NCBI RefSeq assembly: GCF_013304445.1
Contig: NZ_JAAITA010000018.1
Span: 1 to 58,682, forward strand
Length of the DNA stretch: 58,682 bases
Origin: Blautia hansenii
GTDB taxonomy: Bacteria; Bacillota; Clostridia; Lachnospirales; Lachnospiraceae
Direction: 5' to 3'
Shown: positions 1 to 58,682 of the stretch, one piece after another
Layout of the letters: every line of letters starts with the position of its first letter
Position numbering within the stretch: the first letter of the stretch is position 1
Program-made: the position numbers and the translations under genes
Notes under the pieces: generated by a model
Databases searched by the model: none
Told to the model about the DNA's origin: nothing
What the model saw: only the letters and a program-made list of their open reading frames with translations

Positions 1-57
1 GAAGAGGAAGCAGTATCAATTTAATATAGCAATTATTTAATATTCGTTATACTAGTA
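1..57 (+). repeat. Degenerate right end of the 165-bp inverted-repeat element
   Basis: The first bases of the window resemble the right end of the element at 13675-13839. Shared blocks, in the same order, are TCAAT, ATAGCA, TTA, TATTCGTT and TACTA, ending close to base 56. All three forward frames close within the first 45 bases, which fits an insertion into the gene that follows. Only about 45 bases can be compared and the copy is decayed, so the call is tentative. Confidence 0.4.
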
Positions 58-41717: not shown

Positions 41718-41730
41718 AGAGGAAAGTGGT

Positions 41731-42873: not shown

Positions 42874-42874
42874 G

Positions 42875-44155: not shown

Positions 44156-44161
44156 GCAGCT

Positions 44162-45229: not shown

Positions 45230-45250
45230 AAGGCAGGAAAGAAAGGTTAC

Positions 45251-45311
45251 ACAGGCATACAGAAAGAGTTACAGACCTTTTTAGGGAGTAAGTTTCTGTA
45301 TGCCTGTTTTG
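45251..45311 (+). terminator. Terminator after eutH
   Basis: A perfect 15-bp stem (ACAGGCATACAGAAA at 45251-45265 with TTTCTGTATGCCTGT at 45293-45307) with a 27-base loop and TTT tail; it lies between convergent genes. Confidence 0.8.
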
Positions 45312-45328
45312 GGTCTTTAAGGTGAATT

Positions 45329-45949
45329 TTAAACCAGTTCAGCAATTCTGGTGACACCTACATAAATGTCCTGAATTTCGTACCAGGTGGGATAATCCAC
45401 CACGCCAGTTGCGGGAAGACCGAAGATTCTCTGAAATTCCCGAACTGCATTCTGGGTGGCCTCTCCGTAAATTCCGTCAGCTGTCACGGAAGGAAGGGCA
45501 GGGTAAGCTTTGCTGATGGCATTTAGCTGTTCCTGTATCTGGCGTACTTTGCTGCCGGAGGAGCCAATGTCCAGCGGCTGTCCAGGCCAGGAAGCAGGAA
45601 TACCGGAAATTTCTTCTGCGGTATTGATGTACATGTTGTCACCGTAGAAATTCCGCAGAATTTCAATAGCAGAGTAGCCCTGGTCACCCAAATACTTCGA
45701 CCCCCACTGTGTCATCCAATTTGGACACTGGACCCGTTCTCCGTCACAGTATTGGGTGAGAATGGGCTGCCGTACGCCAGGGCGAGACAGATAGTTGTCG
45801 AAAAGTTCGTCTACGATTTGGGAAATGCTTTCAAAAATATTGCGCCCGTACATCCATTTGTGGTCAAAGGCAGTGGAAGAGGTGATGGTGAAATCGTAGC
45901 CTTTGTTCCGGTACACCGAAATCAATACATATTCGGGGTTACAGAAACC
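45329..45949 (-). pseudogene. SpoIID-like/peptidoglycan-binding protein, 5'-truncated copy
   Basis: The reading frame on the minus strand encodes about 198 residues from the TTG at 45925, and stays open only to the TGA at 45952-45950. The first part (FESISQIVDELFDNYL ... WMTQWGSKYLGDQGYSAIEILRNFYG) resembles the end of SpoIID-type proteins; the last 70 residues (DIGSSGSKVRQIQEQL ... DGIYGEATQNAVREFQ) are a PG_binding_1 domain. Homologues start with a longer N-terminal region that is missing here, so the copy is truncated. A second copy at 58131 shares a perfect 224-bp tract with it (45657-45880) but differs in its 3' third. Confidence 0.65.
45657..45880 (-). repeat. 224-bp perfect direct repeat, left copy
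   Basis: Identical base by base to 58459-58682, at a constant offset of 12802. Before 45657 (C45656 against A58458 is the last mismatch) the two copies differ at roughly one base in five or six. The right copy is cut off by the window end, so the true length on that side may be greater. Confidence 0.95.
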
Positions 45950-45974
45950 TCATTATCAATGAATTGGTGATTAA

Positions 45975-46091
45975 AAAAGAAGAAACAAGAGTAAAGAAGT
46001 CGTTAAACAAGGGGGAAAGATAGACTTGTTTAATTTCGAATATCCATTTATAATTACAATAGGTAAAAGATACACGGAAAGGTTGTCGTAA
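45975..46091 (+). pseudogene. Start-less 38-codon remnant before the DUF3990 gene
   Basis: An open frame from after TAA 45972-45974 to TAA 46089-46091 encodes a basic peptide with KIDLFNFEYPFIITIGKRY. It has no start codon with a ribosome site. Its position suggests the 3' end of an upstream partner of the DUF3990 operon lost at the junction. Not recognised. Confidence 0.3.
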
Positions 46092-46093
46092 AT

Positions 46094-46795
46094 ATGATAA
46101 AAGTTTTTCACGGTTCTGATCATATTATAAAAATACCCCGTTATATGGGCGGTAAAACTGATAATGATTATGGAAATGGATTTTATACAACAGAATATGA
46201 AGAACGTGCCAGAAGTTGGGCAACACTCAACGGTAATCCGCAAAAATCAATTGTAAATATGTATCAGCTTGATTTAGATGGATTAAACATATTGGATTTG
46301 AATGAACGTGGGGTTTTAGCTTGGATTGCTGAAGTGGTATCGAATAGAGGAACGAATCAAGAAGCTGCAAGTATTGTTGGAGAAAGGCTTGTTGAATTAT
46401 ACGCACCGAATCACGATGGGTACGATATTATAAAAGGATATCGTGCAGATGATAGTTATACACAGGTTGTGGAAGCATTTTTGTTAAACCAGATTAATAT
46501 TTTTGAAGTAGAGCATCTGTTTTATAAGGGATCGTTAGGAAATCAGATTTTTTTGAAGTCAAAAAAAGCGTTTGAACATATTAAGTGGTTGGAATCGTAT
46601 GAAGTAGTCATGCTAGAAGAATATAAAAACTCAGATATGTATGCAAGAAGAGAAGTGAATCGATTTTTAAAGGAACGTATGAAAGCAATTTTGATTGATG
46701 GATATACAGTGCCAGGAATTACTGCAAGATATGCAATTCAGAATCCATTAGTTTATAATCATGAAATTGGAGGATATGAAAATGCCAGCGTATGA
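46094..46795 (+). CDS. DUF3990 protein, predicted ADP-ribosyltransferase fold
   Basis: A 233-residue protein. Near the N-terminus FHGSDHIIKIPRY is followed by DYGNGFYTTEYEERARSWA, the pattern of DUF3990 proteins. This places H6, Y31 and E127 (TQVVEAFLLNQ) as a possible H-Y-E triad of the PARP/diphtheria-toxin-like ADP-ribosyltransferase clade. The segment YDIIKGYRADDSY, where homologues bind NAD-side loops, is present. It overlaps the next gene by 14 bases. The pair may be a toxin/partner module or modify a host protein; no experimental function is known to me. The A/T content is higher than in the flanking genes. Confidence 0.65.
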   Translation: MIKVFHGSDHIIKIPRYMGGKTDNDYGNGFYTTEYEERARSWATLNGNPQKSIVNMYQLDLDGLNILDLNERGVLAWIAEVVSNRGTNQEAASIVGERLVELYAPNHDGYDIIKGYRADDSYTQVVEAFLLNQINIFEVEHLFYKGSLGNQIFLKSKKAFEHIKWLESYEVVMLEEYKNSDMYARREVNRFLKERMKAILIDGYTVPGITARYAIQNPLVYNHEIGGYENASV

Positions 46796-47192
46796 TGAAT
46801 GTTATTTGGATAGTATGATTACGAAGACAAGGTATCTGTTTAAATTGATTGGCAGAAATTGTTCGGATCCTTTTTTGATGATTTCGAAGTATATGAAATG
46901 TGATTATAGGAAATATATGGACATGGGGAATCCGATGTACTTAAATAAGACTCCGAAGCAAATTATGGAAGAATTGGGTGTCAGCATTCAAAGCGGCCAT
47001 GAGACAGATGAGAAATATGACGAGTTTATATTAGAGTGGATGGCAGATATTTATGTGTATATGCAGTGGGAATATGACCTTTCATCATCGGAAATTGTAG
47101 AGAAGCTAACGCCGGAGAAATTATATAAGCAATACTATCCGTTGCATGAAACTTCTGTTGAAAACGGTGTGAGAAAATTGCTAAGTATGTAG
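46782..47192 (+). CDS. Small partner of the DUF3990 protein, unknown function
   Basis: ATG 46782 is chosen because TTGGAGG ends 8 bases upstream, inside the DUF3990 gene; an ATG at 46776 is too close. The 136-residue product is mostly helical and aromatic-rich (YLFKLIGRN, YVYMQWEYDLSS, KLYKQYYPLH). I do not recognise a family. A 14-base overlap with the DUF3990 gene implies coupled translation and a stoichiometric partner, for example an immunity or antitoxin protein; this is inference. Its stop codon lies in the stem of the following terminator. Confidence 0.6.
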   Translation: MPAYDECYLDSMITKTRYLFKLIGRNCSDPFLMISKYMKCDYRKYMDMGNPMYLNKTPKQIMEELGVSIQSGHETDEKYDEFILEWMADIYVYMQWEYDLSSSEIVEKLTPEKLYKQYYPLHETSVENGVRKLLSM

Positions 47193-47226
47193 AGGATGCG
47201 TGGACCGCATCCTCTACTACATTTTT
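47189..47226. terminator. Bidirectional terminator of the DUF3990 module
   Basis: A perfect 12-bp stem GTAGAGGATGCG/CGCATCCTCTAC with loop TGGAC, followed by TACATTTTT. It also faces the end of the convergent HTH gene at 47234. Confidence 0.8.
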
Positions 47227-47233
47227 ACCATCA

Positions 47234-47422
47234 TTAATATTTGTAGGATACTTTGCTAATGATGTATTCGATTAAACATTTTTTGGGGATTTTCCAGTCT
47301 TTCCCTTCTTTAAATCCTTTCAATTGCCCAGTACGAACAATTTTATATGTTTGAGAGGTGCCTATTTTAAGAATATCCGCAACCTCTGGAATGGTTAAAA
47401 TATCATCATAAGCTTCAAGCAT
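47234..47422 (-). CDS. Excisionase-like helix-turn-helix protein
   Basis: A 62-residue MerR-superfamily/excisionase-type DNA-binding protein: ILTIPEVADILKIGTSQTYKIVRTGQLKGFKEGKDWKI is the classic wing-containing HTH_17 pattern ending in a lysine/tryptophan turn. Such proteins are found as Xis directionality factors in mobile elements or as small regulators beside toxin systems. It starts 2 bases after the stop of a truncated gene on the same strand (47424), as in a former operon. No integrase is visible. Confidence 0.75.
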   Translation of the reverse strand: MLEAYDDILTIPEVADILKIGTSQTYKIVRTGQLKGFKEGKDWKIPKKCLIEYIISKVSYKY

Positions 47423-47423
47423 G

Positions 47424-47550
47424 TTACTTTACCCCCATTAAGTTAATATCCATATTAGATGCTAATGCGTATATTTGTCTGAGGAAATCTTTAAATACGG
47501 AACCAATGAAAGGTGACGTGTCAAGACGATGACTTGTTGTTGAAATGATA
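47424..47550 (-). pseudogene. 3' remnant of a gene upstream of the HTH gene
   Basis: On the minus strand the last about 35 codons (RLDTSPFIGSVFKDFLRQ then IYALASNMDINLMGVK) end at 47424, directly before the HTH start. Upstream the frame runs into sequence that is antisense to the cdsA fragment, so the gene was cut at about 47540-47556. Family not recognised. Confidence 0.4.
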
Positions 47551-47556
47551 AAATGC

Positions 47557-47751
47557 GTGTATGGTATCATCTGTGCCGTAGGAGCATTGATTTCCATGGT
47601 AGGGGATTTGGCTGCTTCTGCGATTAAGAGAAACAAAGAGATTAAAGATTACGGAAAACTGATACCGGGACATGGAGGGATTCTGGATCGGTTTGACAGC
47701 GTGATTTTTACAGCACCGTTTATCTATTTTCTGGCAAACGTGTTGATTTAA
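47557..47751 (+). pseudogene. 3' fragment of a second cdsA
   Basis: The last 65 codons or so of a cdsA homologue (IICAVGALISMVGDLAASAIKRN ... GKLIPGHGGILDRFDS ... FLANVLI) without the rest of the enzyme. It matches the end of the complete cdsA at 41717 closely in protein but differs at many third positions. It is followed, as in the first copy, by a 13-base gap and dxr. Its left end marks the junction with the DUF3990/HTH module. Confidence 0.85.
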
Positions 47752-47764
47752 GGAGAAGGTAAGT

Positions 47765-48907
47765 ATGATAAAAATTGCGATTTTAGGTTCTACAGGTTCC
47801 ATTGGAACCCAGACCCTGGATATTGTGAGAAAAAATAAAGATTTACAGGTTCTTGGCCTGGCAGCAGGAAGAAATATTTCCATGCTGGAGGAACAAATCC
47901 GGGAATTTTCTCCAAGACTGGCAGCAGTAGGAGATGAAGAAAAAGCGGCAGAACTCAGAGAACGGGTCAAAGACACAGACTGCAAGGTAGTGGGAGGTAT
48001 GGATGGACTTCTGGAACTGGCGGCTATGGAAGGCACACAGATTCTTGTCACAGCTATTGTGGGAATGATCGGAATCCGTCCTACTATTGAAGGAATCAAA
48101 GCAGGCAAAGATATTGCACTTGCTAATAAAGAGACCTTGGTCACAGCGGGACATATCATCATGCCGCTGGCAGAGCAATATGGGGTACGGATTCTGCCGG
48201 TGGACAGTGAACACAGTGCTATTTTCCAGGCATTAAACGGAGAAGAACATAAGACCATTGACAAATTGCTCATCACTGCATCCGGAGGTCCTTTCAGAGG
48301 AAGAAAAACAGAAGACCTGAGAGACATTCAGGTGGAAGATGCCCTGAAGCATCCAAATTGGGCTATGGGGCAGAAGATTACCATTGACTCAGCGACCCTG
48401 GTGAACAAGGGCTTAGAAGTCATGGAAGCGAAATGGCTGTTCGGTGTTGATCTGGATCAGATTCAGGTAGTGGTGCAGCCCCAGAGTGTGATTCATTCTA
48501 TGATTCGGTTTACAGATGGCAGTGTGATGGCACAGCTTGGAACACCGGATATGCGGCTGCCGATTCAATATGCTCTTTATGGTGGAACCAGGAGATATCT
48601 GGATGGGGAACGTCTGGATTTTGCAAAACTTGGTTCTATTACCTTCGAGAATCCAGATATGGAAACCTTCAAAGGCCTGCCTCTTGCCATGAAGGCATCA
48701 CGAACAGGTGGTTCTATGCCAACGGTATTTAACGCTGCAAATGAAAAGGCAGTGGCTCTGTTCCTTCAGAAAAAAATTGCTTTTCTGGATATTTACCGGA
48801 TTATTGAGGATGCTATGGAGAGTCATAAAGTAATCCCGGCACCTACCGTAGAAGAGATTTTAAATATCGAACAAGAAATATACAATAGAATTGAAAGCAG
48901 GTGGTAG
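47765..48907 (+). CDS. dxr: 1-deoxy-D-xylulose 5-phosphate reductoisomerase (second copy)
   Basis: A complete 380-residue DXR with all motifs intact (ILGSTGSIGTQTL, ANKETLVTAGHIIM, VDSEHSAIFQ, GPFRGRKT, TIDSATLVNKGLEVMEA). It is about 85% identical in protein to the copy at 41731 and diverged at the DNA level, so it is not a recent tandem duplication but resembles the orthologue of a related species. AGGAGAAGG precedes ATG 47765. No promoter is obvious; transcription would come from read-through or from upstream of the fragment. Confidence 0.95.
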   Translation: MIKIAILGSTGSIGTQTLDIVRKNKDLQVLGLAAGRNISMLEEQIREFSPRLAAVGDEEKAAELRERVKDTDCKVVGGMDGLLELAAMEGTQILVTAIVGMIGIRPTIEGIKAGKDIALANKETLVTAGHIIMPLAEQYGVRILPVDSEHSAIFQALNGEEHKTIDKLLITASGGPFRGRKTEDLRDIQVEDALKHPNWAMGQKITIDSATLVNKGLEVMEAKWLFGVDLDQIQVVVQPQSVIHSMIRFTDGSVMAQLGTPDMRLPIQYALYGGTRRYLDGERLDFAKLGSITFENPDMETFKGLPLAMKASRTGGSMPTVFNAANEKAVALFLQKKIAFLDIYRIIEDAMESHKVIPAPTVEEILNIEQEIYNRIESRW

Positions 48908-48908
48908 A

Positions 48909-50189
48909 TTGAAAATTTTAATTGCACTGTTGGTATTTTCTGTGATTGTGCTGTTTCATGAACTAGGGCATTTTCTCTTGGCAAAGAGAAACGGTATCGC
49001 AGTCACAGAGTTCTCCCTGGGAATGGGGCCGAGGCTTCTTTCTACAGAAAAAGGAGGAACCAGATACTCTTTGAAACTTTTTCCTATCGGAGGCTCCTGT
49101 ATGATGGTAGGAGAAGATGAGGATGATGACAGCGAAAGGTCTTTCAATAATGCATCTGTATGGGCAAGAATATCAGTAGTTGCAGCAGGACCTATTTTTA
49201 ACTTTATCCTAGCCTTTGTGTTTGCCATGATCATTACCAGCGTGGTAGGATATGATCCGGCAAGAGTGCTGCAGGTGACAGAAGGATCTCCGGCAGCCCA
49301 GGCAGGACTGAAAGAAGGAGATATCATCAAAGAATTTCAGGGAAGGCATATTTCCATAGGCCGTGACCTGGATTCTTATATGACGTTACATGGACTGAAA
49401 GACGAAGAAATTTCTTTGACCTATGAAAGAGATGGGAAGAAGCACGATATTCAGTTCCAGGCAAATAGTGAAAGCAGATATATGCTTGGTTTTACTTATT
49501 TGTCCGAAGGAATACCAGAGATTACCCAGGTCATGTTAAACAGTGCTATGACAAAAGCCGGCGTAATGCCAGGAGATATTATCAGGGAGATCAATGGAAC
49601 TGCAGTTGCAGACAGCCAGGAGATTCAGGCATATTTGCAGGAGCATCCGCTGGATGGAACAGAGATTACTCTTGGGATTGAAAGAGACGGAAAAGTGGAG
49701 ACAATCTCTGCAATCCCACAGATGACCAAACATGTAGATTCTGGATTTATCTACAATATTTACCGGGAAAAGACAAATTTTCTGGGTGTTATGAAATACA
49801 GTGCAGTGGAAGTGCGGTACTGGGTTTCTACAACCGTAGAGAGTCTAATGATGCTCATAAAAGGGCAGTTTTCGGTCAATGATCTTTCCGGTCCGGTGGG
49901 AATCATCGATGTCATCGGAGATTCTTATGAGGAAGCAAAAAGTGAGGGTGCCATGATGGTGTGGATGCAGATGCTGTACTGGGCAATCCTGCTTTCAGCG
50001 AACCTGGGTGTTATGAATCTTCTTCCCATACCTGCTCTTGACGGAGGCAGGCTTGTATTCTTGCTCATTGAGTCTGTGAGAAAGAAACGGTTGAATCCCA
50101 ATGTGGAGGGTATGATTCATTTTGCAGGTTTTGTCCTCCTGATGATGCTGATGGTATTTGTGATGTTTAACGATTTTAGGAGATTATAA
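48909..50189 (+). CDS. rseP: RseP-type site-2 metalloprotease (second copy)
   Basis: A complete 426-residue second RseP from TTG 48909, matching the first copy's start and its spacing to dxr. It retains HELGH in the first membrane segment, PDZ segments (VTEGSPAAQAGLKEGDII, KAGVMPGDIIREINGT) and the NLLPIPALDGGRL ligand region. The protein is roughly 80-85% identical to the first copy. Here it is followed not by eutH but by the ribU riboswitch and gene. Confidence 0.92.
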   Translation: MKILIALLVFSVIVLFHELGHFLLAKRNGIAVTEFSLGMGPRLLSTEKGGTRYSLKLFPIGGSCMMVGEDEDDDSERSFNNASVWARISVVAAGPIFNFILAFVFAMIITSVVGYDPARVLQVTEGSPAAQAGLKEGDIIKEFQGRHISIGRDLDSYMTLHGLKDEEISLTYERDGKKHDIQFQANSESRYMLGFTYLSEGIPEITQVMLNSAMTKAGVMPGDIIREINGTAVADSQEIQAYLQEHPLDGTEITLGIERDGKVETISAIPQMTKHVDSGFIYNIYREKTNFLGVMKYSAVEVRYWVSTTVESLMMLIKGQFSVNDLSGPVGIIDVIGDSYEEAKSEGAMMVWMQMLYWAILLSANLGVMNLLPIPALDGGRLVFLLIESVRKKRLNPNVEGMIHFAGFVLLMMLMVFVMFNDFRRL

Positions 50190-50197
50190 GAAATTTC

Positions 50198-50226
50198 TTG
50201 AAAAAACTGCCGTTGTGGCATATAAT
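50198..50226 (+). promoter_or_regulatory. ribU: ribU promoter
   Basis: TTGAAA at 50198-50203 and TATAAT at 50221-50226, spacer 17, 20 bases before the FMN riboswitch. Confidence 0.75.
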
Positions 50227-50245
50227 AAAAGCAAATAAAAGAAAA

Positions 50246-50354
50246 TTCTTCGGGGCGGGGCGTGATTCCCCACCGGCGGTATAGTCCGCGAGCGCAGATG
50301 CGTTGATTTGGTGAGATTCCAAAACCGACAGTATAGTCTGGATGAGAGAAGAAA
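50246..50354 (+). ncRNA. FMN riboswitch (RFN element)
   Basis: Conserved blocks are present in order: CTTCGGGGCGGGG, GTGATTCCCCACCGGCGGTA, TAGTCCGCGAGCG, TTGGTGAGATTCCAAAACCG, ACAGTATAGTCTGGATGAGA and GAAG. It senses flavin mononucleotide and controls ribU via the terminator at 50417. Confidence 0.97.
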
Positions 50355-50416
50355 GATTCGTGATTGTTCCAAGATGATTTTTCATGTGTATCTATGGAAA
50401 ATCAAAAACGGATATT

Positions 50417-50446
50417 AGCCCTGAGTATTTTGCTCAGGGCTTTTTG
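50417..50446 (+). terminator. Terminator of the FMN riboswitch
   Basis: A 9-bp perfect stem AGCCCTGAG (50417-50425) / CTCAGGGCT (50433-50441) followed by TTTTTG, between aptamer and ribU. The 100 bases from here to the start of ribU hold only its ribosome site and no other clear signal. Confidence 0.9.
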
Positions 50447-50549
50447 TTTGATGGGAGGTTGCATTTTCCATCACAGGGACATTGCAGGGTCTACATTCAA
50501 AACGAAAGGATTTCCTTTTATATCAAGATATCAAAAGGAGAGAACGAAC

Positions 50550-51188
50550 ATGAGTGAACAGGTATTAAGAAAAATGGATGCAGCACAAAAAAGCAGAAGC
50601 AAAGTAAGGACGATTGTCCAGGTGGCAATGCTGGGAGCAATTTCAACAGTTTTGATGCTGTTTGAGTTTCCGCTTCCGTTTCTGGCACCGCCTTTCTATG
50701 AATTGGATTTCAGCGAGGTTCCGGTTCTGATTGGTGCATTTGCTATGGGCCCTGTAGCTGGAATTGCCATTGAAGCAGTAAAAGTTTTGCTGAACTTTGT
50801 ATTAAACGGAACCATTACAGCAGGGGTCGGCGAGGTGGCGAATTTCATAGTTGGATGTGCTTTCCTTCTTCCTGCTTCCTTCCTTTACAGAAGAAAAAAA
50901 ACAAGGAAAAATGCAGTAATCGGTATGACGACGGGAACCGTGCTGATGACAGTTTTTGCATGTGTGCTTAATGCCTTTATATTGCTTCCAGCATATGGAG
51001 CAGCGTTTGGAATGCCGGTACAGGCTTTTGTAGAAATGGGAACTAAGATTAACGGAGCGATTGACAGTTTGTTTATGTTTGCTGTTCTTGCCGTTGGTCC
51101 TTTTAATCTTTTGAAAGGTGTTCTTGTTTCTGTTATTGTATTACTGCTTTATAAAAGAATCCGTGTGATTTTAAGAGGAGATATGTAA
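50550..51188 (+). CDS. ribU: Riboflavin transporter RibU (ECF S component)
   Basis: ATG 50550 with AAAAGGAGAG upstream gives 212 residues. Six membrane segments and the RibU signature FPLPFLAPPFYELDFSEVPV followed by GPVAGIAIEAVK are clear. It binds riboflavin and works with the general ECF module. Regulation by the FMN riboswitch directly upstream fits this function. Confidence 0.96.
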   Translation: MSEQVLRKMDAAQKSRSKVRTIVQVAMLGAISTVLMLFEFPLPFLAPPFYELDFSEVPVLIGAFAMGPVAGIAIEAVKVLLNFVLNGTITAGVGEVANFIVGCAFLLPASFLYRRKKTRKNAVIGMTTGTVLMTVFACVLNAFILLPAYGAAFGMPVQAFVEMGTKINGAIDSLFMFAVLAVGPFNLLKGVLVSVIVLLLYKRIRVILRGDM

Positions 51189-51198
51189 AAGAAAAGCA

Positions 51199-51243
51199 AG
51201 CTCCATAATCCAGAGCAACAAAATCTGGTTTATGGGGCTTTTA
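51199..51243. terminator. Terminator between ribU and the XRE-cupin gene
   Basis: AGCTCCATAATCCAGA pairs with TCTGGTTTATGGGGCT, followed by TTTT. Confidence 0.8.
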
Positions 51244-51279
51244 ACATGTAAAAAATCGCAATGTTTATCCGTATCTGGT

Positions 51280-51882
51280 CTAATTAAGTGTCTTGTCTGC
51301 AAGCTCATCGATTTCCTGACGGAATTCAGAGGTGGATACGATCAAAAATTTAGCAGAGCTCTTTGTGTGATTTTTCCATCGATGTCCGATCTCATTGGGA
51401 TAGTACAGGGTATCACCAACTTCTAATACATAGCTGCCAACCTGTTCCAGATAAAAAGTGATACTGCCTTCCAAGACAAAAACAAATTCTTCTCCTCCGT
51501 GATAATAATAGTCTCCGGAGTCTGTTCCAGCAGGCATATCAATGATACCTCCCCACATTCGGCTATCACCTTTTGTAATAAGAGATTCAAGGATGGTTTC
51601 CTGATTGCTGGTATTTCTTACAAAAGAGGTGCGTTCATTTTTTCGTACAAGTTTTACCCGATCGCTGTCATCTTGAATAAAAAGAGCTGAGATAGGGAAG
51701 TTTAGGGATTCGCATAAAGAATAGACGCTCACAAGGTTTGGAGATGTTTTCCCGGTTTCAATCTGACTAATAGTTCCAGCGGCAACCCCAGATTTTACGG
51801 AAAGCTCCCGGATAGAAAGATTTAGTTCAATTCTTCTGCTTTTCAATAAAAAGCCAATTCTGGCAAGATTCAGTTTTGACAT
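51280..51882 (-). CDS. XRE-family regulator with cupin sensor domain
   Basis: A 200-residue regulator. Residues 8-62 form the HTH_3 domain (LLKSRRIELNLSIRELSVKSGV ... GTISQIETGKTSPNL). Residues about 120-190 form a cupin (GDYYYHGGEEFVFVLEGSITFYL ... GDTLYYPNEIGHRW) that would bind a small ligand. The gene is divergent from the nucleoside-type importer operon; the 16-bp palindrome over that operon's -10 element is a probable binding site. AAAGGGGAA precedes its start on the minus strand. The ligand may be a purine or a related base, inferred from the operon. Confidence 0.87.
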   Translation of the reverse strand: MSKLNLARIGFLLKSRRIELNLSIRELSVKSGVAAGTISQIETGKTSPNLVSVYSLCESLNFPISALFIQDDSDRVKLVRKNERTSFVRNTSNQETILESLITKGDSRMWGGIIDMPAGTDSGDYYYHGGEEFVFVLEGSITFYLEQVGSYVLEVGDTLYYPNEIGHRWKNHTKSSAKFLIVSTSEFRQEIDELADKTLN

Positions 51883-51959
51883 AGTGTTCCCCTTTGCTTC
51901 TTCTTTTGTTCTCTATGATAACACAGAAAAAAAGATTTGTCATGAAAAACAAAATGTAA

Positions 51960-51992
51960 TTGACAAAATAATATATGTTCATTATAATGAAC
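51960..51992 (+). promoter_or_regulatory. Promoter with 16-bp perfect palindrome over the -10
   Basis: TTGACA (51960-51965) and TATAAT (51983-51988) with 17-base spacer form a consensus promoter. GTTCATTATAATGAAC (51977-51992) is a perfect palindrome centred on the -10 element, so a bound protein would block polymerase. The divergent XRE-cupin regulator is the obvious candidate. Confidence 0.8.
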
Positions 51993-52031
51993 GAGAAATG
52001 ACGATTACGATGTAGTGAAGGAGAAGAAAAT

Positions 52032-53048
52032 ATGAAGAAACTTTTAGCTGCAATGTTATGTGGAGCTTTAGCAACAGGAACTTTGGCCGGATGTGGCAAC
52101 AAAGCGGAAGAGAAAAAAACAGAAGCAAAAGATGATACACTGAAGGTAGCCCTTTGTGTTACCGGTGCAGTCAATGATATGGGATGGTGCCAGTCAGCAT
52201 ACGAAGGTCTGAAACTGGTGGAAGAAGAACTGGGATGTGAAATTGCTTATACAGAAAATGTACAGGCAGCAGATATGACTTCTGCATTTACAGAATATGC
52301 ATCTAATGACTACGATGTAGTGATTGGACATGGTTTCCAGTTTGGTGATCCGGCCTTAGAAGTAGGAGAATTGTATCCGGATACAAAATTTATCTGCATT
52401 GAATCAGATGCAGCTGCAGAAAATGTTGCATCCTATGTTATGAAATGTGAAGAAACGGGATACCTTCAGGGTATGCTGGCAGCAGGAATGTCACAGACAG
52501 GAAATATTGGATTTATTGGACCAGTACAGGGAGCGTCTCTTGTAAAAATCATGAACGGATATGAAGATGGTGCAAAAGAAGTAAATCCAGACATAAAATA
52601 CCAGACAGCTTGGACCGGTTCTTTTACAGATACCGCATTGGCAAAAGAAGCAGCACAGGCCATGATTGACGGTGGTGCAGATGTCATCGGACATTGTGCA
52701 AATGAATCAGGTACAGGAGCATTGAATGCAGCACAGGATGCCGGATTATTTGCTACAGGTGATTCTTATGATCAGAGTGCTCTTGCTGAAAATGCAGTTC
52801 TTTCTTCTGCAGTATATCATGTTCCGGAGCTAATCAAAACAGCTGTTACAGATATTAAAGAGGGGAACTTCAAGGGAGAAGTTAAGGAACTTGGAATGGC
52901 GGAAGGCATTGTAGAATTAGTTTATAACAAAGCTATGGAAGACAAGATTCCGGCAGAGGTAAAAGAAATGGTAGATGCAAAAGAAGCCGAAATTAAAGAT
53001 GGAAGCTTCAAGGTTCCATGTGACACAAAAGACAGAGCAGGAAAGTAA
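52032..53048 (+). CDS. BMP-family nucleobase/nucleoside-binding lipoprotein
   Basis: A 338-residue substrate-binding protein of the basic membrane protein (PnrA/Med) family. The signal peptide ends in LAGCG, anchoring it by Cys. The family opening KVALCVTGAVNDMGWCQSAYEG, IGHGFQFGDPALEVGELYPDTKF and IGFIGPVQGASLVKIMNGYEDG segments are clear. BMP proteins bind purine nucleosides or related bases for ABC uptake. It is the first gene of the importer operon. Confidence 0.92.
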   Translation: MKKLLAAMLCGALATGTLAGCGNKAEEKKTEAKDDTLKVALCVTGAVNDMGWCQSAYEGLKLVEEELGCEIAYTENVQAADMTSAFTEYASNDYDVVIGHGFQFGDPALEVGELYPDTKFICIESDAAAENVASYVMKCEETGYLQGMLAAGMSQTGNIGFIGPVQGASLVKIMNGYEDGAKEVNPDIKYQTAWTGSFTDTALAKEAAQAMIDGGADVIGHCANESGTGALNAAQDAGLFATGDSYDQSALAENAVLSSAVYHVPELIKTAVTDIKEGNFKGEVKELGMAEGIVELVYNKAMEDKIPAEVKEMVDAKEAEIKDGSFKVPCDTKDRAGK

Positions 53049-53076
53049 TCAGGAATAGAATTATATAGAAATCATG

Positions 53077-53121
53077 CAGGCAGGACAATAGGAGCTGGAT
53101 TTTATTGGACCTGCCTGTTTT
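53077..53121 (+). other. Intercistronic hairpin between binding protein and ATPase
   Basis: CAGGCAGG (53077-53084) pairs with CCTGCCTG (53110-53117), extended by CAATA/TATTG, followed by TTTT. Like the hairpin at 2525 it would raise the level of binding protein over the transporter subunits by partial termination or mRNA protection. Confidence 0.6.
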
Positions 53122-53136
53122 AAAGGAGCCTTCAAT

Positions 53137-54663
53137 ATGATGAATATATTAGAGATGAAGCATATCGGAAAGAAATTTTCCGGCGTCTATGCCAATGAAA
53201 AAATCGATCTGTCTGTGGCAAAAGGCGAAATTCATGCATTGCTTGGAGAGAATGGTGCTGGGAAAACGACATTGATGAATATTTTGTTCGGGATTTATTC
53301 TGCAGATGAAGGAGAAATTTTTTGGAAAGGCAAACAAGTGCATTTCCATTCTCCTAAAGATGCGATTGCAGAAGGAATCGGAATGGTACACCAGCATTTT
53401 TCTCTTGTGAATAAGATGACAGTTCTTGACAATGTGATTTTGGGATTGGAAAAGCAAGGGTTTTTTCTGGATCGTAAAAGTGCAAAAAAAAGCCTGGAAG
53501 ATCTGGCAGAACGATATGGTCTGCAAGTGGATCCGGATGCAAGGATTAGTGAGCTTTCTGTTGGGCAGCAGCAGAGAGTAGAGATTTTAAAAGCATTATA
53601 CAGAAATGTAGAATTATTAATTTTGGATGAACCAACGGGTGTTCTTACGCCAAAAGAAACAGAGAAATTTTTTTCCGTGCTTAGAAAATTGAAGGCAGAA
53701 GGATATGCCGTGATCATTATTACCCATCGTATGAGTGAGATTATGAGTATCAGTGATCGTGTAACCATTTTAAGGGACGGAAAGAAAATAAAAGATCTTG
53801 TAACAAAAGACACCAATCCCACAGAATTGTCCAATTATATGATTGGAAGACAGTTGGATTATAACTTTGAAGTAAAAGAAACAGAGAAGAAAGAAATAGC
53901 ATTACAGCTAAAAGATATTACTGTAAAAAAAGGACATAAAAAACCGGTTCTGGATCAGATCAATCTGGAAGTTTACAAAGGGGAAATCTTGGGGATTGCC
54001 GGAGTAGACGGAAATGGACAAAAGGAGCTGGCAGAAGTGATTGCCGGTATCCGAAAGATTTCTAAAGGGGAAATCTGCTACATGGGAGAAGAGATTGCTT
54101 CCTGGAAGATTAAGGAGCGATTTGAAAAAGGAATTTCTTATATTTCAGACGACCGACATAGAGATGGACTGGTGTTGGATATGAATGTAGAAGAAAATCT
54201 GATTTTGCGGCAGTATGATAAAAAGCCGTTTTTAAAGAATGGTATTTTTCAGAAAAAAGCTATTAAAGAAAATGCAGAAAAAGCAATTGAGAAGTATCAC
54301 ATTAAAACATCAGGGAATCAGGAGGGAGAGACTCCTGTAAAATTCATGTCGGGTGGAAATCAGCAGAAAGTAATACTTGCCAGGGAAATTACGGAGCATT
54401 CCAAATTAATTATCGCAAATCAGCCTACGAGAGGATTAGATATTGGTGCAACACAGTTTGTTCGTCAGGTCTGGATGGATCAAAGAAATGAAGGGAAAAG
54501 TGTAATCCTGATTTCAGCAGATCTAGAAGAAATCATGCAGCTTTCTGACAGAGTGGCAGTTATGTTTGGTGGAAAAATCGTAGGTGTTCAGAAAAAAGAA
54601 GAAATTGAAATGGAACAGTTAGGACTTCTGATGGGCGGTATTACGAAGGAGGAAATGAAATAA
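53137..54663 (+). CDS. Nucleoside-type ABC importer ATP-binding protein
   Basis: A 508-residue fused double ATPase of the sugar/nucleoside (NupA/RbsA) type. Domain 1 (to about 245) has Walker A GENGAGKTT, signature LSVGQQQR and Walker B LILDEPTGVL. Domain 2 has a degenerate Walker A region GVDGNGQKE, signature MSGGNQQK and LIIANQPTRGLD. The next gene's ATG overlaps its stop. It energises the two permeases downstream. Confidence 0.92.
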   Translation: MMNILEMKHIGKKFSGVYANEKIDLSVAKGEIHALLGENGAGKTTLMNILFGIYSADEGEIFWKGKQVHFHSPKDAIAEGIGMVHQHFSLVNKMTVLDNVILGLEKQGFFLDRKSAKKSLEDLAERYGLQVDPDARISELSVGQQQRVEILKALYRNVELLILDEPTGVLTPKETEKFFSVLRKLKAEGYAVIIITHRMSEIMSISDRVTILRDGKKIKDLVTKDTNPTELSNYMIGRQLDYNFEVKETEKKEIALQLKDITVKKGHKKPVLDQINLEVYKGEILGIAGVDGNGQKELAEVIAGIRKISKGEICYMGEEIASWKIKERFEKGISYISDDRHRDGLVLDMNVEENLILRQYDKKPFLKNGIFQKKAIKENAEKAIEKYHIKTSGNQEGETPVKFMSGGNQQKVILAREITEHSKLIIANQPTRGLDIGATQFVRQVWMDQRNEGKSVILISADLEEIMQLSDRVAVMFGGKIVGVQKKEEIEMEQLGLLMGGITKEEMK

Positions 54664-55697
54664 TGGGAAGTAGAAAAAAATATCTGGATATTGTCTGGAT
54701 CGTGCTGTTAGCCATCCTAATGGGAACCATTTTGATTTTACTCTGTGGTGCGAATCCTCTGGAAGCTTATACTATGTTTTTGGGCGGTGTGTTTGGTAAT
54801 CTCAATGGTTTTTGTGAGATTTTTGTAAAAGCGACCCCATTGATTCTGACGGGTCTCGGATGTGCAGTGGCATTTCGTACCGGTTTTTTCAATATTGGTG
54901 CGGAAGGACAGTTTTATATTGGTGCTATTGCTGCGGCTATGGTTTCCTTGACTTTTACACAGGTTCCCGGGAGTCTTCGCATCGTGCTTTCTATTGTAGC
55001 TGGATTTCTCTGTGGAGGAATTTGGGCACTGATTGCAGCAATCATGAAGTCAAAATTTGGTATCTCAGAAATTATTGTAACAATCATGTTAAATTATATT
55101 GCCATCAATCTTCTGGGGATTGCGGTTCGTACATTCTTAATGGATCCGGCGGGATCGGTTCCTCAATCTGCGAGAATTGACAGAGAAGCTACGTTTTCCT
55201 ATTTGATGCCTCCGACTACCCTGCATGGAGGAATTTTTATTGCTGTTGCAGCAGTAGTATTCATCTGGATTCTTATGGAAAAAACAAAGTTCGGTTATGA
55301 AATGAAAGTGGTGGGTATGAATAGGCATGGTGCTGCCTGCAATGGAATTTCGGTGATGAAAAACATTGTACTGTCTGCCTTTTTAAGCGGTGGACTTGCC
55401 GGAATTGCAGGTGTGATTGAAGTTATTGCCGTGCAGAAAAAACTGATAGAAGGAATCTCTTCCGAGTGTGGTTATACAGCAGTTTTGATTGCTTTGATTG
55501 CTGGAAATCGTCCATGGGGTGTGCTTGCTGCTGCGTTAGCATTTGCAGCAATGCAGGTCGGAGCAAATTCTATGCAGAGACAACTTGGCGTTCCGTCTGC
55601 ACTTGTCAGCATTTTGATCGGATTTGTGGTACTCCTTATCCTGGGAAGAAAGGCGTTCCATCTATCACTATTAAAGAGAAAAAACAAGGAGGTATAA
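54663..55697 (+). CDS. Nucleoside-type ABC importer permease 1
   Basis: A 344-residue permease of the branched-chain/nucleoside (BPD_transp_2) type with about nine hydrophobic segments. GCAVAFRTGFFNIGAEGQFYIGA and IAGVIEVIAVQKKLIEGISSECGYTAVLIALIA are typical. It pairs with the next permease, which starts 3 bases after its stop. Confidence 0.9.
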   Translation: MGSRKKYLDIVWIVLLAILMGTILILLCGANPLEAYTMFLGGVFGNLNGFCEIFVKATPLILTGLGCAVAFRTGFFNIGAEGQFYIGAIAAAMVSLTFTQVPGSLRIVLSIVAGFLCGGIWALIAAIMKSKFGISEIIVTIMLNYIAINLLGIAVRTFLMDPAGSVPQSARIDREATFSYLMPPTTLHGGIFIAVAAVVFIWILMEKTKFGYEMKVVGMNRHGAACNGISVMKNIVLSAFLSGGLAGIAGVIEVIAVQKKLIEGISSECGYTAVLIALIAGNRPWGVLAAALAFAAMQVGANSMQRQLGVPSALVSILIGFVVLLILGRKAFHLSLLKRKNKEV

Positions 55698-55699
55698 GG

Positions 55700-56641
55700 A
55701 TGCTGGAACAAATTTTTACACTTACGTTTTTTACTGCATTTTTGGCAGCAGCCGTACGAATGGCAGTTCCGCTTATCTATGCTGCCCTTGGAGAAGTGTT
55801 TCTGGAAAAAACAGGAATTTTGAACATAGGGCTGGAAGGCGTTATGTTGGGCGGTGCATTCGGTTCTTTTGCAGGGGCGTTTTACAGTAATAGTCTGTTG
55901 GTGGGATTTCTCTGCGGTATGCTGGGGGGATGTCTTGTCAGCGTGATTCATGGATTTTTATGTATTAAGCTGTTTCAGGATCAGTCCGTCAGCGGCATTG
56001 CCCTTAATATTTTTATGTTGGGTGTTACCAGTTTTGGATATAAGTTGATGTCTGCGGGAGAATCTTATCAGCAGATCGAAACACTGAAACGTATTAGAAT
56101 CCCTGTACTCAGTAGAATTCCTCTCATTGGAGATGCATTTTTCAATCAGGATATTATGACCTATCTTGTGTTTGTTCTTGTGATTCTTGCATCTGTATTT
56201 TATAGGAAAACCTCATCCGGGCTTGCGTTTTCCTCTATTGGTGAAAATCCTCAGTCTGCGGATGCAGCAGGTATCTCTGTATATGGACATCAGTGGGCTG
56301 CGATTGTGGTAAACGGTGTATTGGGCGGTATCGGAGGTGCAGTTCTGGTACTGGTACAGCTTGGTAAGTTTTCAGAGAATATGATTTCCGGACGAGGATA
56401 TATTGCACTTGCTGCGGTAATTCTTGGAAGATATACACCGCTTGGGGCTATGGGTGCAGCTTTCGTGTTTGGCGGTGCCAATGCACTTCAGATTCGCTTA
56501 CAGGCCATGGGAGTTCCGCTTCCTACTCAGGCACTTGCAATGCTTCCGTACGTGATAACGTTGCTGACATTGTTACTTTCTATTGGAAAAAGTAACCAGC
56601 CTGAGAAATTAGGCAAACCGTATATCCGTGGTTCCAGATAA
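55700..56641 (+). CDS. Nucleoside-type ABC importer permease 2
   Basis: ATG 55700 with AAGGAGG upstream gives 313 residues; a longer in-frame reading from 55466 runs through the previous gene and is not real. Typical segments are VPLIYAALGEVFLEKTGILNIGLEGVML and ENPQSADAAGISVYGHQWAAIVVNG. With the preceding permease, ATPase and BMP lipoprotein it completes the importer. Confidence 0.9.
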   Translation: MLEQIFTLTFFTAFLAAAVRMAVPLIYAALGEVFLEKTGILNIGLEGVMLGGAFGSFAGAFYSNSLLVGFLCGMLGGCLVSVIHGFLCIKLFQDQSVSGIALNIFMLGVTSFGYKLMSAGESYQQIETLKRIRIPVLSRIPLIGDAFFNQDIMTYLVFVLVILASVFYRKTSSGLAFSSIGENPQSADAAGISVYGHQWAAIVVNGVLGGIGGAVLVLVQLGKFSENMISGRGYIALAAVILGRYTPLGAMGAAFVFGGANALQIRLQAMGVPLPTQALAMLPYVITLLTLLLSIGKSNQPEKLGKPYIRGSR

Positions 56642-56668
56642 GATATTTTAAAGTTTGGAGGTAAAGAC

Positions 56669-58054
56669 ATGAGTAAAATTTTAATAAAAAATGCAAAAGC
56701 AATTGTAACATGTAATGCAAAAGATGACGTGTTTTATGATTCGGATTTATTGATTGATGGAGCAAAAATCTCTGCAATCGGAAAGAATCTTCCGGCAGAG
56801 GATGCAGAGGTGATTGATGGAACAGGGAAATTTGTATATCCCGGAATGGTAAATACGCATCATCATTTTTTTCAGACCTTTGTAAGAAATCTGATTACCA
56901 TTGATTATCCACATCTGACAGTTATGGATTGGATTGATAAAATTTATCGCATTTTCCAGAACATTGATGATCAGATTATTTATTATTCTTCTTTGACTGC
57001 CATGGCTGACCTGTTAAAACACGGATGTACTACAGCATTTGATCATCAGTATTGTTATACAACAACAACCGGAAAAAGACCGGTTGATCGTCAGATGGAA
57101 GCAGCAGCCCAGTTGGGAATCCGTTATCATGCAGGGCGTGGAGGAAACACACTGCCGAGAGAAGAGGGAAGTTCTATTCCGGCAGCTATGGTGGAAACGA
57201 CAGATGAGTTTATTCGGGATTGTGAGCGATTGATCGATCAATATCATGATGCATCTCCATATTCTATGAGTCAGATCGTAGTGTCTCCATGTCAGCCGAT
57301 CAACTGTTATAGAGATACGTTTGTAGAATCTGTAAAACTGGCAAGAGATAAAGGTGTCCGTTTGCATACACATCTTGGAGAAGGAGAAAGTGAAGGAATC
57401 CGGGAACGTTATGGGATGCGTACATTGGATTGGTGTGAGAAAATTGGATTTATTGGAGATGATGTTTTTTATGCACATGCATGGGAATTAACGCAGGCAG
57501 AATACGAAAAAATTGCGAAAACAGGAACAGGAATCTCCCATTGTCCGGCACCTGCAGTTCTTGGTGGTTTCCCTATTCTGGATATCAAAAAACTTCAGGA
57601 AATGGGAGTTCTTGTTAGTCTTGGGTGTGATGGTTCTGCTACGAATGACAGTTCAAATGAGTTGGATGCACTGCGTATGGCGTATCTGATGCAGGCATAT
57701 CATACAAAAGAAAGAGGAGGAAGTGTTTCTGCTTATGACATGTTAAAAGTAGCAACCATCAATGGTGCAAAAACACTTGGAAGAATGGATCTTGGTTCTC
57801 TGGAACCGGAAAAAGGAGCAGACATGTTTTTGGTTGATACACGTAGTCTGGAATTTACAGGAGCAGTACATGATCCGAAAAACCTTCTTGCAAGAGTCGG
57901 TGTAACAGGGCCGGTGTGGATGACCATAGTGAATGGAAAAATTGTATATGCAGACGGACATTTAACCGGTGTGGATGAAGAGAAACTTGCTCAGGAGGGG
58001 GAAGAGGTCTGCACAAAAGTATTGAGAAATCAGTTTCCGAATTACTGGAAGTAA
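56669..58054 (+). CDS. Amidohydrolase, 8-oxoguanine deaminase-like
   Basis: A 461-residue amidohydrolase-superfamily enzyme of the AtzA/TrzN subgroup. The metal site is formed by VNTHHHFFQ, LHTHLGEGES (the second His of HxH), YAHAWELT and the Asp in LGCDGSATNDSSNE. The GMVNTHHHFFQT and WELT...HCPAPAVLGGFP pattern resembles 8-oxoguanine deaminases, which convert 8-oxoguanine to urate; guanine or a related base is also possible. It ends the importer operon, so the imported base is probably deaminated in the cytoplasm as a nitrogen or purine source. GGAGG precedes ATG 56669. Confidence 0.85.
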   Translation: MSKILIKNAKAIVTCNAKDDVFYDSDLLIDGAKISAIGKNLPAEDAEVIDGTGKFVYPGMVNTHHHFFQTFVRNLITIDYPHLTVMDWIDKIYRIFQNIDDQIIYYSSLTAMADLLKHGCTTAFDHQYCYTTTTGKRPVDRQMEAAAQLGIRYHAGRGGNTLPREEGSSIPAAMVETTDEFIRDCERLIDQYHDASPYSMSQIVVSPCQPINCYRDTFVESVKLARDKGVRLHTHLGEGESEGIRERYGMRTLDWCEKIGFIGDDVFYAHAWELTQAEYEKIAKTGTGISHCPAPAVLGGFPILDIKKLQEMGVLVSLGCDGSATNDSSNELDALRMAYLMQAYHTKERGGSVSAYDMLKVATINGAKTLGRMDLGSLEPEKGADMFLVDTRSLEFTGAVHDPKNLLARVGVTGPVWMTIVNGKIVYADGHLTGVDEEKLAQEGEEVCTKVLRNQFPNYWK

Positions 58055-58072
58055 GATAAAACAGAAAGGAAA

Positions 58073-58132
58073 GACCGCGAGGCTGCCACAGAATGTCAAT
58101 AAAAAGTGGTATGCCTGAGCGGTCTGTTTTTT
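58073..58132. terminator. Terminator between amidohydrolase and the convergent gene
   Basis: GACCGC with an inner AGGCTGCCAC pairs with GTGGTATGCCT and GCGGTC, followed by TGTTTTTT. The stem is bulged but the base pairs and T run are strong. Confidence 0.7.
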
Positions 58133-58682
58133 AAACTAATTCGGCAATTCTGGTGACGCCTACGTAAATTTCCTGAATTTCATACCAGGTAGAGTAATCC
58201 ACCACACCGGTTACAGGGAGACCAAATACTTTTTGGAATTCCCGGATTGCATTCTGGGTAGCTTCTCCATAGATTCCATCTGCTGTTATCTTAGGAAGTG
58301 CAGGATAGGAATTGGCAATGACATTCAGCTGTTCCTGTATCTGTCGCACTTTAGGTCCGGAGGAACCGATGTCCAGGGGATTTCCTGGCCATGAAGCAGG
58401 AATACCGGAAATTTCTTCTGCGCTGTTGATATACATATTATCTCCATAAAAATTGCGAAGAATTTCAATAGCAGAGTAGCCCTGGTCACCCAAATACTTC
58501 GACCCCCACTGTGTCATCCAATTTGGACACTGGACCCGTTCTCCGTCACAGTATTGGGTGAGAATGGGCTGCCGTACGCCAGGGCGAGACAGATAGTTGT
58601 CGAAAAGTTCGTCTACGATTTGGGAAATGCTTTCAAAAATATTGCGCCCGTACATCCATTTGTGGTCAAAGGCAGTGGAAGA
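58131..58682 (-). CDS. SpoIID-like/peptidoglycan-binding protein, second copy (partial)
   Basis: The minus-strand frame is open from the window end to the stop at 58131, at least 183 residues of C-terminal sequence, and continues beyond the window. It has the SpoIID-like segment WMTQWGSKYLGDQGYSAIEILRNFYG and a PG_binding_1 domain (DIGSSGPKVRQIQEQL ... DGIYGEATQNAIREFQ). From 58459 to the edge its DNA is identical to 45657-45880; its 3' third is only about 80-85% identical to that copy. It is probably the intact gene, in which case the copy at 45329 is the duplicate. Confidence 0.75.
   Translation of the reverse strand, partial: SSTAFDHKWMYGRNIFESISQIVDELFDNYLSRPGVRQPILTQYCDGERVQCPNWMTQWGSKYLGDQGYSAIEILRNFYGDNMYINSAEEISGIPASWPGNPLDIGSSGPKVRQIQEQLNVIANSYPALPKITADGIYGEATQNAIREFQKVFGLPVTGVVDYSTWYEIQEIYVGVTRIAELV
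58459..58682 (-). repeat. 224-bp perfect direct repeat, right copy (cut by window end)
   Basis: Identical to 45657-45880 without a single difference. Identity stops sharply at 58458, beyond which the gene copies are diverged. The two copies flank a 12.8-kb segment. The window, or its contig, ends inside the repeat. Confidence 0.95.

What the first reader, a model, noticed from the sequence alone, without database searches (positions are those of the whole stretch)
45657..58682. 12.8-kb segment bounded by perfect 224-bp direct repeats with an abrupt identity switch
Two copies of a peptidoglycan-binding gene are identical for at least 224 bp and then, at a single point (45656/58458), drop to roughly 80-85% identity in their 3' thirds. 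The left copy is also 5'-truncated within about 70 bp of the repeat end. This mosaic is what a single-crossover (Campbell-type) integration of a circular or linear donor carrying part of a related gene would leave. Recombination between the repeats would delete the segment and rebuild one gene. Because the window ends in the repeat, an assembly join at a repeated sequence is an alternative.
Basis: partly seen in the sequence, partly recalled or inferred. Interest (0 to 1): 0.8.

Follow-up and report, generated by a model that had tools for sequence, protein, structure and literature searches.

The report
Foreign segment inserted in spore gene
A 12.5-kb piece of DNA, part of it probably from a related species, appears to sit inside a spore-germination gene of a gut-type bacterium between two nearly identical 258-base copies of that gene's own sequence, giving the cell a second, diverged copy of two core genes.

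Summary
The window is the whole of contig C9. Its last 55 bases equal the first 55 of contig C28. C28 extends the repeat to 258 bp (257 identical) and supplies the gene's 5' part. The gene is sleC (spore cortex-lytic enzyme pre-pro-form). The right copy is complete but chimeric: diverged 3' third plus native repeat and 5' part. The left copy is the native 3' part, cut at 45914/45915.

Between them lie a candidate defence pair (PDC-M42), the tail of cdsA, complete second dxr and rseP genes (75-77% nucleotide identity to the native ones), an FMN-riboswitch transporter and a BMP/ABC/amidohydrolase module. Of 41 genomes only this one has two complete dxr genes. Eight of nine relatives inspected have sleC uninterrupted.

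Best reading: recent uptake of congeneric DNA, joined by homologous recombination inside sleC at one end and without visible homology at the other, duplicating 258 bp of native sequence. A plain Campbell event would leave donor sequence in the left repeat; it is native. Reads are needed to exclude an excised circle.

Side result: recombinase-bearing elements split sleC at a core inside this repeat in several relatives.

The parts
45329..45656 (-). Native 3' third of sleC (PG_binding_1 domain), left copy
   Evidence: 303 of 330 columns equal to G007 over 45327-45656; 79.7% to the right copy; PG_binding_1
45657..45914 (-). Left repeat R (258 bp): native sleC sequence, also at 58459-58682 plus C28:56-89; one mismatch at 45881
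45711..45718 (.). Core GTCATCCA inside R near which sleC is split by serine-recombinase elements in relatives; unsplit here
45915..47557 (.). AT-rich left part of the insert, no similarity to relatives' sleC and no significant match elsewhere in the genome; start = non-homologous junction 45914/45915, end = junction with truncated cdsA'
46094..46795 (+). DUF3990 protein; PADLOC candidate PDC-M42A
46761..47192 (+). PADLOC candidate PDC-M42B
47234..47422 (-). HTH_17 / excisionase-like small DNA-binding protein
47545..47751 (+). 3' end of a second cdsA (CTP_transf_1 profile positions 206-263 only); blastn similarity to the relatives' cdsA region starts at 47558 or 47569
47765..48907 (+). Second complete dxr (86% amino-acid identity to the native copy at 41731-42873); name from sequence resemblance, recalled, no family search was run on it
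48891..50189 (+). Second complete rseP-type protease gene (83% amino-acid identity to the native copy at 42857-44155); name from sequence resemblance, recalled, no family search was run on it
50242..50357 (+). FMN riboswitch (RF00050)
   Evidence: 114.6 bits against gathering score 66.2
50364..51188 (+). ECF transporter substrate component downstream of the riboswitch
51280..58054 (.). XRE-cupin regulator, BMP lipoprotein, ABC ATPase, two permease frames (not family-searched), amidohydrolase: a unit found at other loci in other Lachnospiraceae
58131..58458 (-). Diverged 3' third of sleC, right copy (262 of 330 columns equal to G007)
58459..58682 (-). Right repeat R as far as the contig end; continues on C28 into the native 5' part of sleC
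58628..58682 (.). 55-bp exact overlap with the start of contig C28 (assembly-graph link)
   Evidence: at the other end of C9 the outermost 55 bases (59 in one case) are shared with four other contig ends

Best explanation
A recent horizontal acquisition. DNA of a related, unsampled species (tail of cdsA, dxr, rseP, FMN-riboswitch transporter, BMP/ABC/amidohydrolase module, 3' third of sleC), carrying an AT-rich piece with a candidate defence pair at its other end, joined the chromosome inside sleC. At the sleC end it recombined with the native gene by homology, switching at 58458/58459. At the other end (45914/45915) it was joined without visible homology, 258 bp further into the native gene, so those 258 native bases now flank the insert on both sides. 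The cell keeps one complete sleC with an exchanged C-terminal domain and is diploid for dxr and rseP. Recombination between the repeats should delete the insert and restore native sleC. Shown: layout as assembled, native type of both repeats, position of the inserted dxr-rseP outside the host's closest group, absence in the relatives examined. Inferred: a single event, its order, the RecA route, the donor and the reversibility.
For: Both repeats are native type: 236 and 237 of 258 columns equal to G007, 257 of 258 to each other. C28:1-832 is 92.3% to G007, continuous there with sleC. The right 3' third is 262 of 330 to G007, the left 303 of 330. Two complete dxr genes in 1 of 41 genomes. Inserted and native dxr-rseP share 75-77% of bases, longest identical run 26, best 100 columns 88, so no general conversion between copies. 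In the tree the inserted dxr-rseP lies outside the 100/100 group of host, G007 and G004. GC of inserted dxr 45.3 against 48.2% native, of the right against left sleC third 43.6 against 50.3% (but see evidence against). The right sleC frame is open across the C9/C28 link. C9 and C28 overlap by exactly 55 bases, and at the other end of C9 the outermost 55 bases recur at four other contig ends, which points to a graph overlap of that length.
Against: No genome with the assumed donor order was found: in the 19 other genus genomes no match runs from rseP' into the riboswitch and transporter, and in the family sample (query from 50200 on, E 1e-100 or better, 10 of 397 matched including the own genome) no listed match other than the own one covers both the transporter and the sleC part. 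So the insert may have been built in several steps. Composition is weak evidence: the native part 1-41000 of the window has 42.7% GC, as low as much of the insert. The published product of homology-facilitated illegitimate recombination usually carries a deletion (PMC3240628), not a 258-bp duplication. No donor sequence is known at 45914/45915, so microhomology cannot be scored. The assembly did not bridge the right repeat, and no reads were available. C28 also departs from the relatives' order 5' of sleC: a glpK-like gene in G004 and G007, a holin-like frame, tRNA-Thr and a transporter operon here, so this locus has probably had more than one rearrangement.
Confidence: 0.6

Rival explanations
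1. Campbell-type single crossover of a circular (or circularised) donor that carried part of a related sleC, followed by repair of the heteroduplex so that both repeats became host type.
For: Gives the same layout: host 3' part, repeat, donor DNA, donor 3' part, repeat, host 5' part. PMC3240628 (section 1, part 1 of 5 seen) reports that linear DNA in E. coli can be circularised and integrated by single crossing-over.
Against: Without conversion the left repeat should be donor type; it is host type across all 258 bp, ending exactly at the junction. Inserted and native dxr-rseP show no converted tracts.
Confidence: 0.22
2. Assembly resolution: the chromosome has an intact sleC (left part straight into C28) and 45657-58458 is a separate or excised 12.8-kb circle.
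For: R shows two entries and two exits only (three matches), so both resolutions fit short reads; the contig stops at the right repeat. The HTH_17 protein has weak matches to phage excisionase families.
Against: C9 runs through the left repeat into 45915, so the assembler chose the integrated path. No replication or recombinase family appeared among the insert proteins that I scanned (dxr', rseP' and the two permeases were not scanned) and a serine-recombinase query found nothing in C9, C28 or C19 at E 1e-3. A circle carrying host R would itself derive from an integrated form.
Confidence: 0.13
3. Old tandem duplication inherited vertically, the 258 bp kept identical by gene conversion.
For: Both copies contain genes of the same region (cdsA, dxr, rseP, sleC) in the same order.
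Against: 1 of 41 genomes has two complete dxr genes. The inserted dxr-rseP is not sister to the native one. Conversion would have had to act on sleC only, and the place of eutH is taken by an unrelated 8-kb stretch.
Confidence: 0.03
4. Site-specific integration by an element that uses the sleC core, as in relatives.
For: R contains the core GTCATCCA near which sleC is split in G005, G009, G017, G019 and G002.
Against: Neither junction is at the core, the core is unsplit in both repeats, and the recombinase of G005 has no match in C9, C28 or C19 (the rest of the genome was not searched for it).
Confidence: 0.02

Closest known systems
Homology-facilitated illegitimate recombination (S. pneumoniae, A. 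baylyi, P. stutzeri; E. coli: PMC3240628, section 1 part 1 of 5 seen)
   Same: One end joined by homology, the other without; foreign DNA added next to the homologous anchor.
   Different: Usually about 1 kb gained with a deletion of similar size; here 12.5 kb gained with a 258-bp duplication.
Transformation-born merodiploids of S. pneumoniae (PMC3784515, passages seen)
   Same: Partial diploidy for essential genes, bordered by direct repeats and expected to be unstable.
   Different: There the cell's own DNA is duplicated over about 100-900 kb between existing repeats; here a diverged foreign copy is added and the repeat arose with it.
Displacement of effector modules in Vibrio T6SS loci (PMC5361080, passages seen)
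   Same: A gene or gene part is displaced by inserted DNA and an older part is left behind next to it.
   Different: No effector-immunity logic: the exchanged part is the peptidoglycan-binding domain of a spore enzyme and the cargo is mainly metabolic.
Sporulation gene-intervening elements (skin, SPbeta in spsM, vfbin, gin, yin: PMC10747680 and PMC5595907, passages seen)
   Same: A sporulation or germination gene is the target, and loss of the insert would give one gene.
   Different: No recombinase seen, no core-site junction, and a complete sleC is already present. Relatives G005 and G009 fit this class better.

Membership tests
Campbell-type single-crossover integration | Direct repeats of the target gene flank the insert | tested here: met
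   258 bp, one mismatch
Campbell-type single-crossover integration | Left repeat donor type and right repeat host type beyond the crossover | tested here: not met
   both host type, 236 and 237 of 258 to G007
Campbell-type single-crossover integration | Circular donor | not testable with these tools
   donor not found
Homology-facilitated illegitimate recombination | One junction inside homologous sequence | tested here: met
   switch at 58458/58459 inside sleC
Homology-facilitated illegitimate recombination | Other junction without homology, 3-10 bp microhomology | tested here: inconclusive
   no similarity to relatives' sleC after 45914; donor side unknown, so microhomology cannot be scored
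Homology-facilitated illegitimate recombination | Deletion of recipient DNA | tested here: not met
   258 bp duplicated instead
Homology-facilitated illegitimate recombination | RecA dependence | not testable with these tools
   needs an experiment
Serine-recombinase integrative element | Recombinase gene in the element | tested here: not met
   tblastn of the G005 recombinase against C9, C28 and C19: no hit at E 1e-3
Serine-recombinase integrative element | Junctions at the attachment core | tested here: not met
   junctions at 45656/7 and 45914/5; core at 45711-45718 unsplit
Tandem duplication of the cell's own DNA | Copies near identical | tested here: not met
   dxr-rseP 75-77%
Sporulation gene-intervening element (as in skin) | Gene is split in the vegetative genome and needs excision | tested here: not met
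   right sleC is complete across C9/C28

The most novel reading that the evidence does not exclude
sleC is a recurrent recombination target in this genus: serine-recombinase elements split it at one fixed core in several species, in frame, so that excision would rebuild it (a further gene for the skin/spsM/vfbin/gin/yin class). The repeat-flanked segment of this genome is a recombinase-free counterpart at the same gene that homologous recombination can remove, so that individual cells switch between a native and a chimeric cortex-lytic enzyme and between one and two dxr-rseP doses.
Probability: 0.12. Interest if true: 0.7.

Novelty: new member of a known kind. Interest (0 to 1): 0.42.

Why it matters
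If right, it is a readable case of DNA from another species entering an anaerobic gut-type Firmicute without a recognisable mobile element, leaving two copies of core genes and an exchanged enzyme domain. The junctions can be tested by one PCR set. The same gene, sleC, is split at a fixed core by recombinase elements in relatives. If those elements excise during sporulation, a germination enzyme joins the short list of genes under such control.

Tried and rejected
Chance similarity: rejected, 224 straight matches next to 79.7% identity. Sequence from a contaminating species: unlikely, since both repeats are native type and the link to C28 is exact; the assembly is listed at 0.54% contamination. 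Conversion as a general process between the copies: not seen in dxr-rseP. Phage or plasmid origin of 45909-47560: no match in either collection. Donor search: one genome-contig scan with the amidohydrolase kept 78 loci. I compared four of these 78 (L048, L049, L050, L075) plus L127 and L128, which are other views of L075 and L049, with window 41001-58682: L048, L075 and L127 match in one piece from about 51.3 to 58.06 kb, L049, L128 and L050 in pieces between 51.3 and 58.04 kb; none matches any other part of that stretch. The other 74 loci were not compared. Simple inversion as the cause of the C28 neighbourhood: C19 upstream of glpK showed no match over 150 bases to the G004 stretches fetched, so a simple inversion was not supported. 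Composition as proof of foreign origin: set aside, because the native part of the window is itself uneven.

Paper searches (10 used): listings seen for all; papers opened are PMC3240628 (section 1, part 1 of 5), PMC3784515, PMC5361080, PMC10747680 and PMC5595907 (passages only). PDC-M42 by name gave 0 papers. For an sleC-splitting element I ran; no listing, and none of the passages read, describes one. This covers only that library and those terms. (family sample, 397 genomes, 255 with a match at E 1e-15) lists its best rows only, so I could not count split sleC genes beyond the genus.

Full report
What was checked. The window is the whole of contig C9 of an unnamed 3.28-Mb, 75-contig genome. 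Two direct copies with 12,802-bp spacing exist. From 45327 to 45656 they differ at 67 of 330 columns, 50 of these at third codon positions; from 45657 to 45880 they are identical.

Beyond the window end. The last 55 bases of C9 are the first 55 of C28, and 55 is the longest such overlap. At the other end of C9 the outermost 55 bases occur in four other places, each at the very end of a contig; the shared stretch is 55, 55, 55 and 59 bases long. I take 55 as the overlap length of the assembly graph. C28 continues the gene in frame to a start codon at C28:769; by my count the right copy has 421 codons. The repeat therefore runs to 45914: 258 bp, 257 identical. At the mismatch, 45881, the left copy has G; C28, G007, G012, G013, G008 and G018 have A, G004 and G010 have G, G011 has T, so its polarity is not certain.

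What the gene is. The intact relatives G004 (421 aa) and G007 (429 aa) have a C-terminal PG_binding_1 domain and a SpoIID stretch below Pfam's cut-off; NCBIfam matches of the G004 protein, spore_SleB best, are all below cut-off. The G004 protein matches chain 9h68_A, 'Spore cortex-lytic enzyme pre-pro-form', over residues 15-420 at E 3.3e-141. I call it sleC.

Which parts are native. Against G007 the left 3' third has 303 of 330 equal columns, the right 3' third 262 of 330, R 236 (left) and 237 (right) of 258; C28:1-832 is 92.3%. So R is native type on both sides, and only the right 3' third and the interior look foreign. In 8 of the 9 relatives whose stretch I fetched (9 of 19 other genus members), the C9 left part and C28 match one continuous sleC; the ninth, G005, is split by an element. 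In G004 and G007 the order is eutH-sleC after rseP, as on the left side here.

What is inside. 45915-47557 is AT-rich, and its stretch has no significant match elsewhere in the genome (best other E 0.1). It codes for a pair that matches PADLOC's candidate defence system PDC-M42 (A: E 6e-39; B: E 2e-18). DNA similar to parts of this stretch was found in 8 of 397 family genomes including the own one. An HTH_17 protein with weak excisionase-type matches follows. Similarity to native cdsA begins near 47558, so cdsA' is only a 3' end. Complete dxr and rseP follow (names by recalled resemblance). They are 75-77% identical to the native genes in DNA, with a longest identical run of 26. In the dxr-rseP tree of 21 rows the inserted pair groups with the host's part of the genus (94/94, not above the program's own threshold) but outside the 100/100 group of host, G007 and G004. 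An FMN riboswitch precedes an ECF transporter gene. The unit 51.3-58.07 kb (regulator, BMP protein, ABC transporter, amidohydrolase nearest to 8-oxoguanine deaminase models but below their cut-offs) occurs as a unit in other Lachnospiraceae at 68-80% in the loci compared.

Singularity. Of 41 genomes (own included) 37 have dxr, and only the own genome has two complete copies. G004 shows two rows that are adjoining parts of one gene. Four have none, all from other families of the order. In the 19 other genus genomes no match runs from rseP' into the riboswitch and transporter.

Mechanism. The layout as assembled is native DNA to 45914, foreign DNA from 45915 to 58458, then native DNA again starting 258 bp earlier in the native sequence. 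The right junction lies in homologous sequence; the left does not. One homologous and one non-homologous join is the signature described for homology-facilitated illegitimate recombination (PMC3240628, section 1 part 1 seen), but that usually deletes recipient DNA, while here 258 bp are duplicated. So I say it works like that process and do not file it as one. Campbell integration gives the same layout only if the whole tract was later converted to host type. The pneumococcal merodiploid model (PMC3784515, passages) shows how a fragment can bridge two chromatids and leave a duplication; it is a plausible route to the 258-bp gain, untested here. A comEC-family gene is present, but the family also rings in 10 of 14 control genomes, E. 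coli among them, so this says little.

Assembly. R has two entries and two exits. Short reads alone allow the chromosomal insertion or an intact sleC plus a circle. The assembler took the first path on the left and stopped on the right. I hold the insertion more likely, because a circle with native R presupposes an earlier insertion and nothing I scanned in the segment looks like a replicon.

A hot spot. In the 19 other genus genomes, sleC is matched in one piece in 11, in two pieces in 5 (G003, G005, G009, G017, G019), by one half only in G002, and not at all in G014 and G016. The pieces meet at GTCATCC(A), window 45711-45718, inside R; G009 and G019 differ from it by a base on one side. In G005 and G009 the halves lie about 50 kb apart on one chromosome, and a serine recombinase of about 500 aa sits next to the 3' half; G017 and G019 have one 61% identical to it there. 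In G019 an Amidase_2 protein lies beyond the other half. In G002 only the 5' half was found, with flanking DNA like that of G017 and G019. G003 breaks at contig ends and is unresolved. In G005 both halves read through the shared residues WMT, so a precise excision would keep the frame (inference). Known genes of this class in the passages read are sigK, spsM, spoVFB, gerE and yabG (PMC10747680, PMC5595907); sleC is not among them. The G005 recombinase has no match in C9, C28 and C19 of the genome in question, so this is context, not the cause.

Neighbourhood. 5' of sleC, C28 carries a holin-like frame (my reading of the sequence, not searched), tRNA-Thr and a transporter operon, whereas G004 and G007 have a gene there that I read as glpK; its counterpart is on C19 here. 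The locus has probably been rearranged at least once more.

Verdict. Real in the assembly, and more than chance. Probably a recent insertion of congeneric DNA with duplication of 258 native bases; ordinary in kind, unusual in its readable junctions and in making the cell diploid for two core genes.

Noticed in passing
G005:C1:350202-400085, G009:C1:3844009-3893867; also G017, G019, G002 (loci L181-L190, L193); same site as window 45711-45718: sleC is split at a fixed core in several relatives, with a large serine recombinase next to the 3' half in G005, G009, G017 and G019 (G002: only the 5' half seen); possible sporulation/germination gene-intervening elements.
   Followed up: partly
[quoted passage not shown]
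   Followed up: partly
L144 (C28) 833-1400: sleC 5' flank differs from G004/G007: holin-like frame and tRNA-Thr instead of a glpK-like gene, whose counterpart lies on C19.
   Followed up: partly
window 1-55: The outermost bases of C9 at its left end are shared with the ends of C16, C23, C34 and C73.
   Followed up: partly
window 51314-58067; L048, L049, L050, L075: XRE-cupin/BMP/ABC/amidohydrolase unit that occurs as a block at other loci in Lachnospiraceae, perhaps uptake and deamination of a purine-like compound.
   Followed up: partly
G004:C1:1764989-1766129 (in L145): dxr of G004 appears as two overlapping frame pieces, a frameshift or sequencing error.
   Followed up: no
family sample: Several genomes (for example G051, G066, G081, G091, G093) show two sleC matches with a weaker best score than most single-match genomes; split sleC, contig breaks or paralogues could each explain this, and the rows are not listed.
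   Followed up: no
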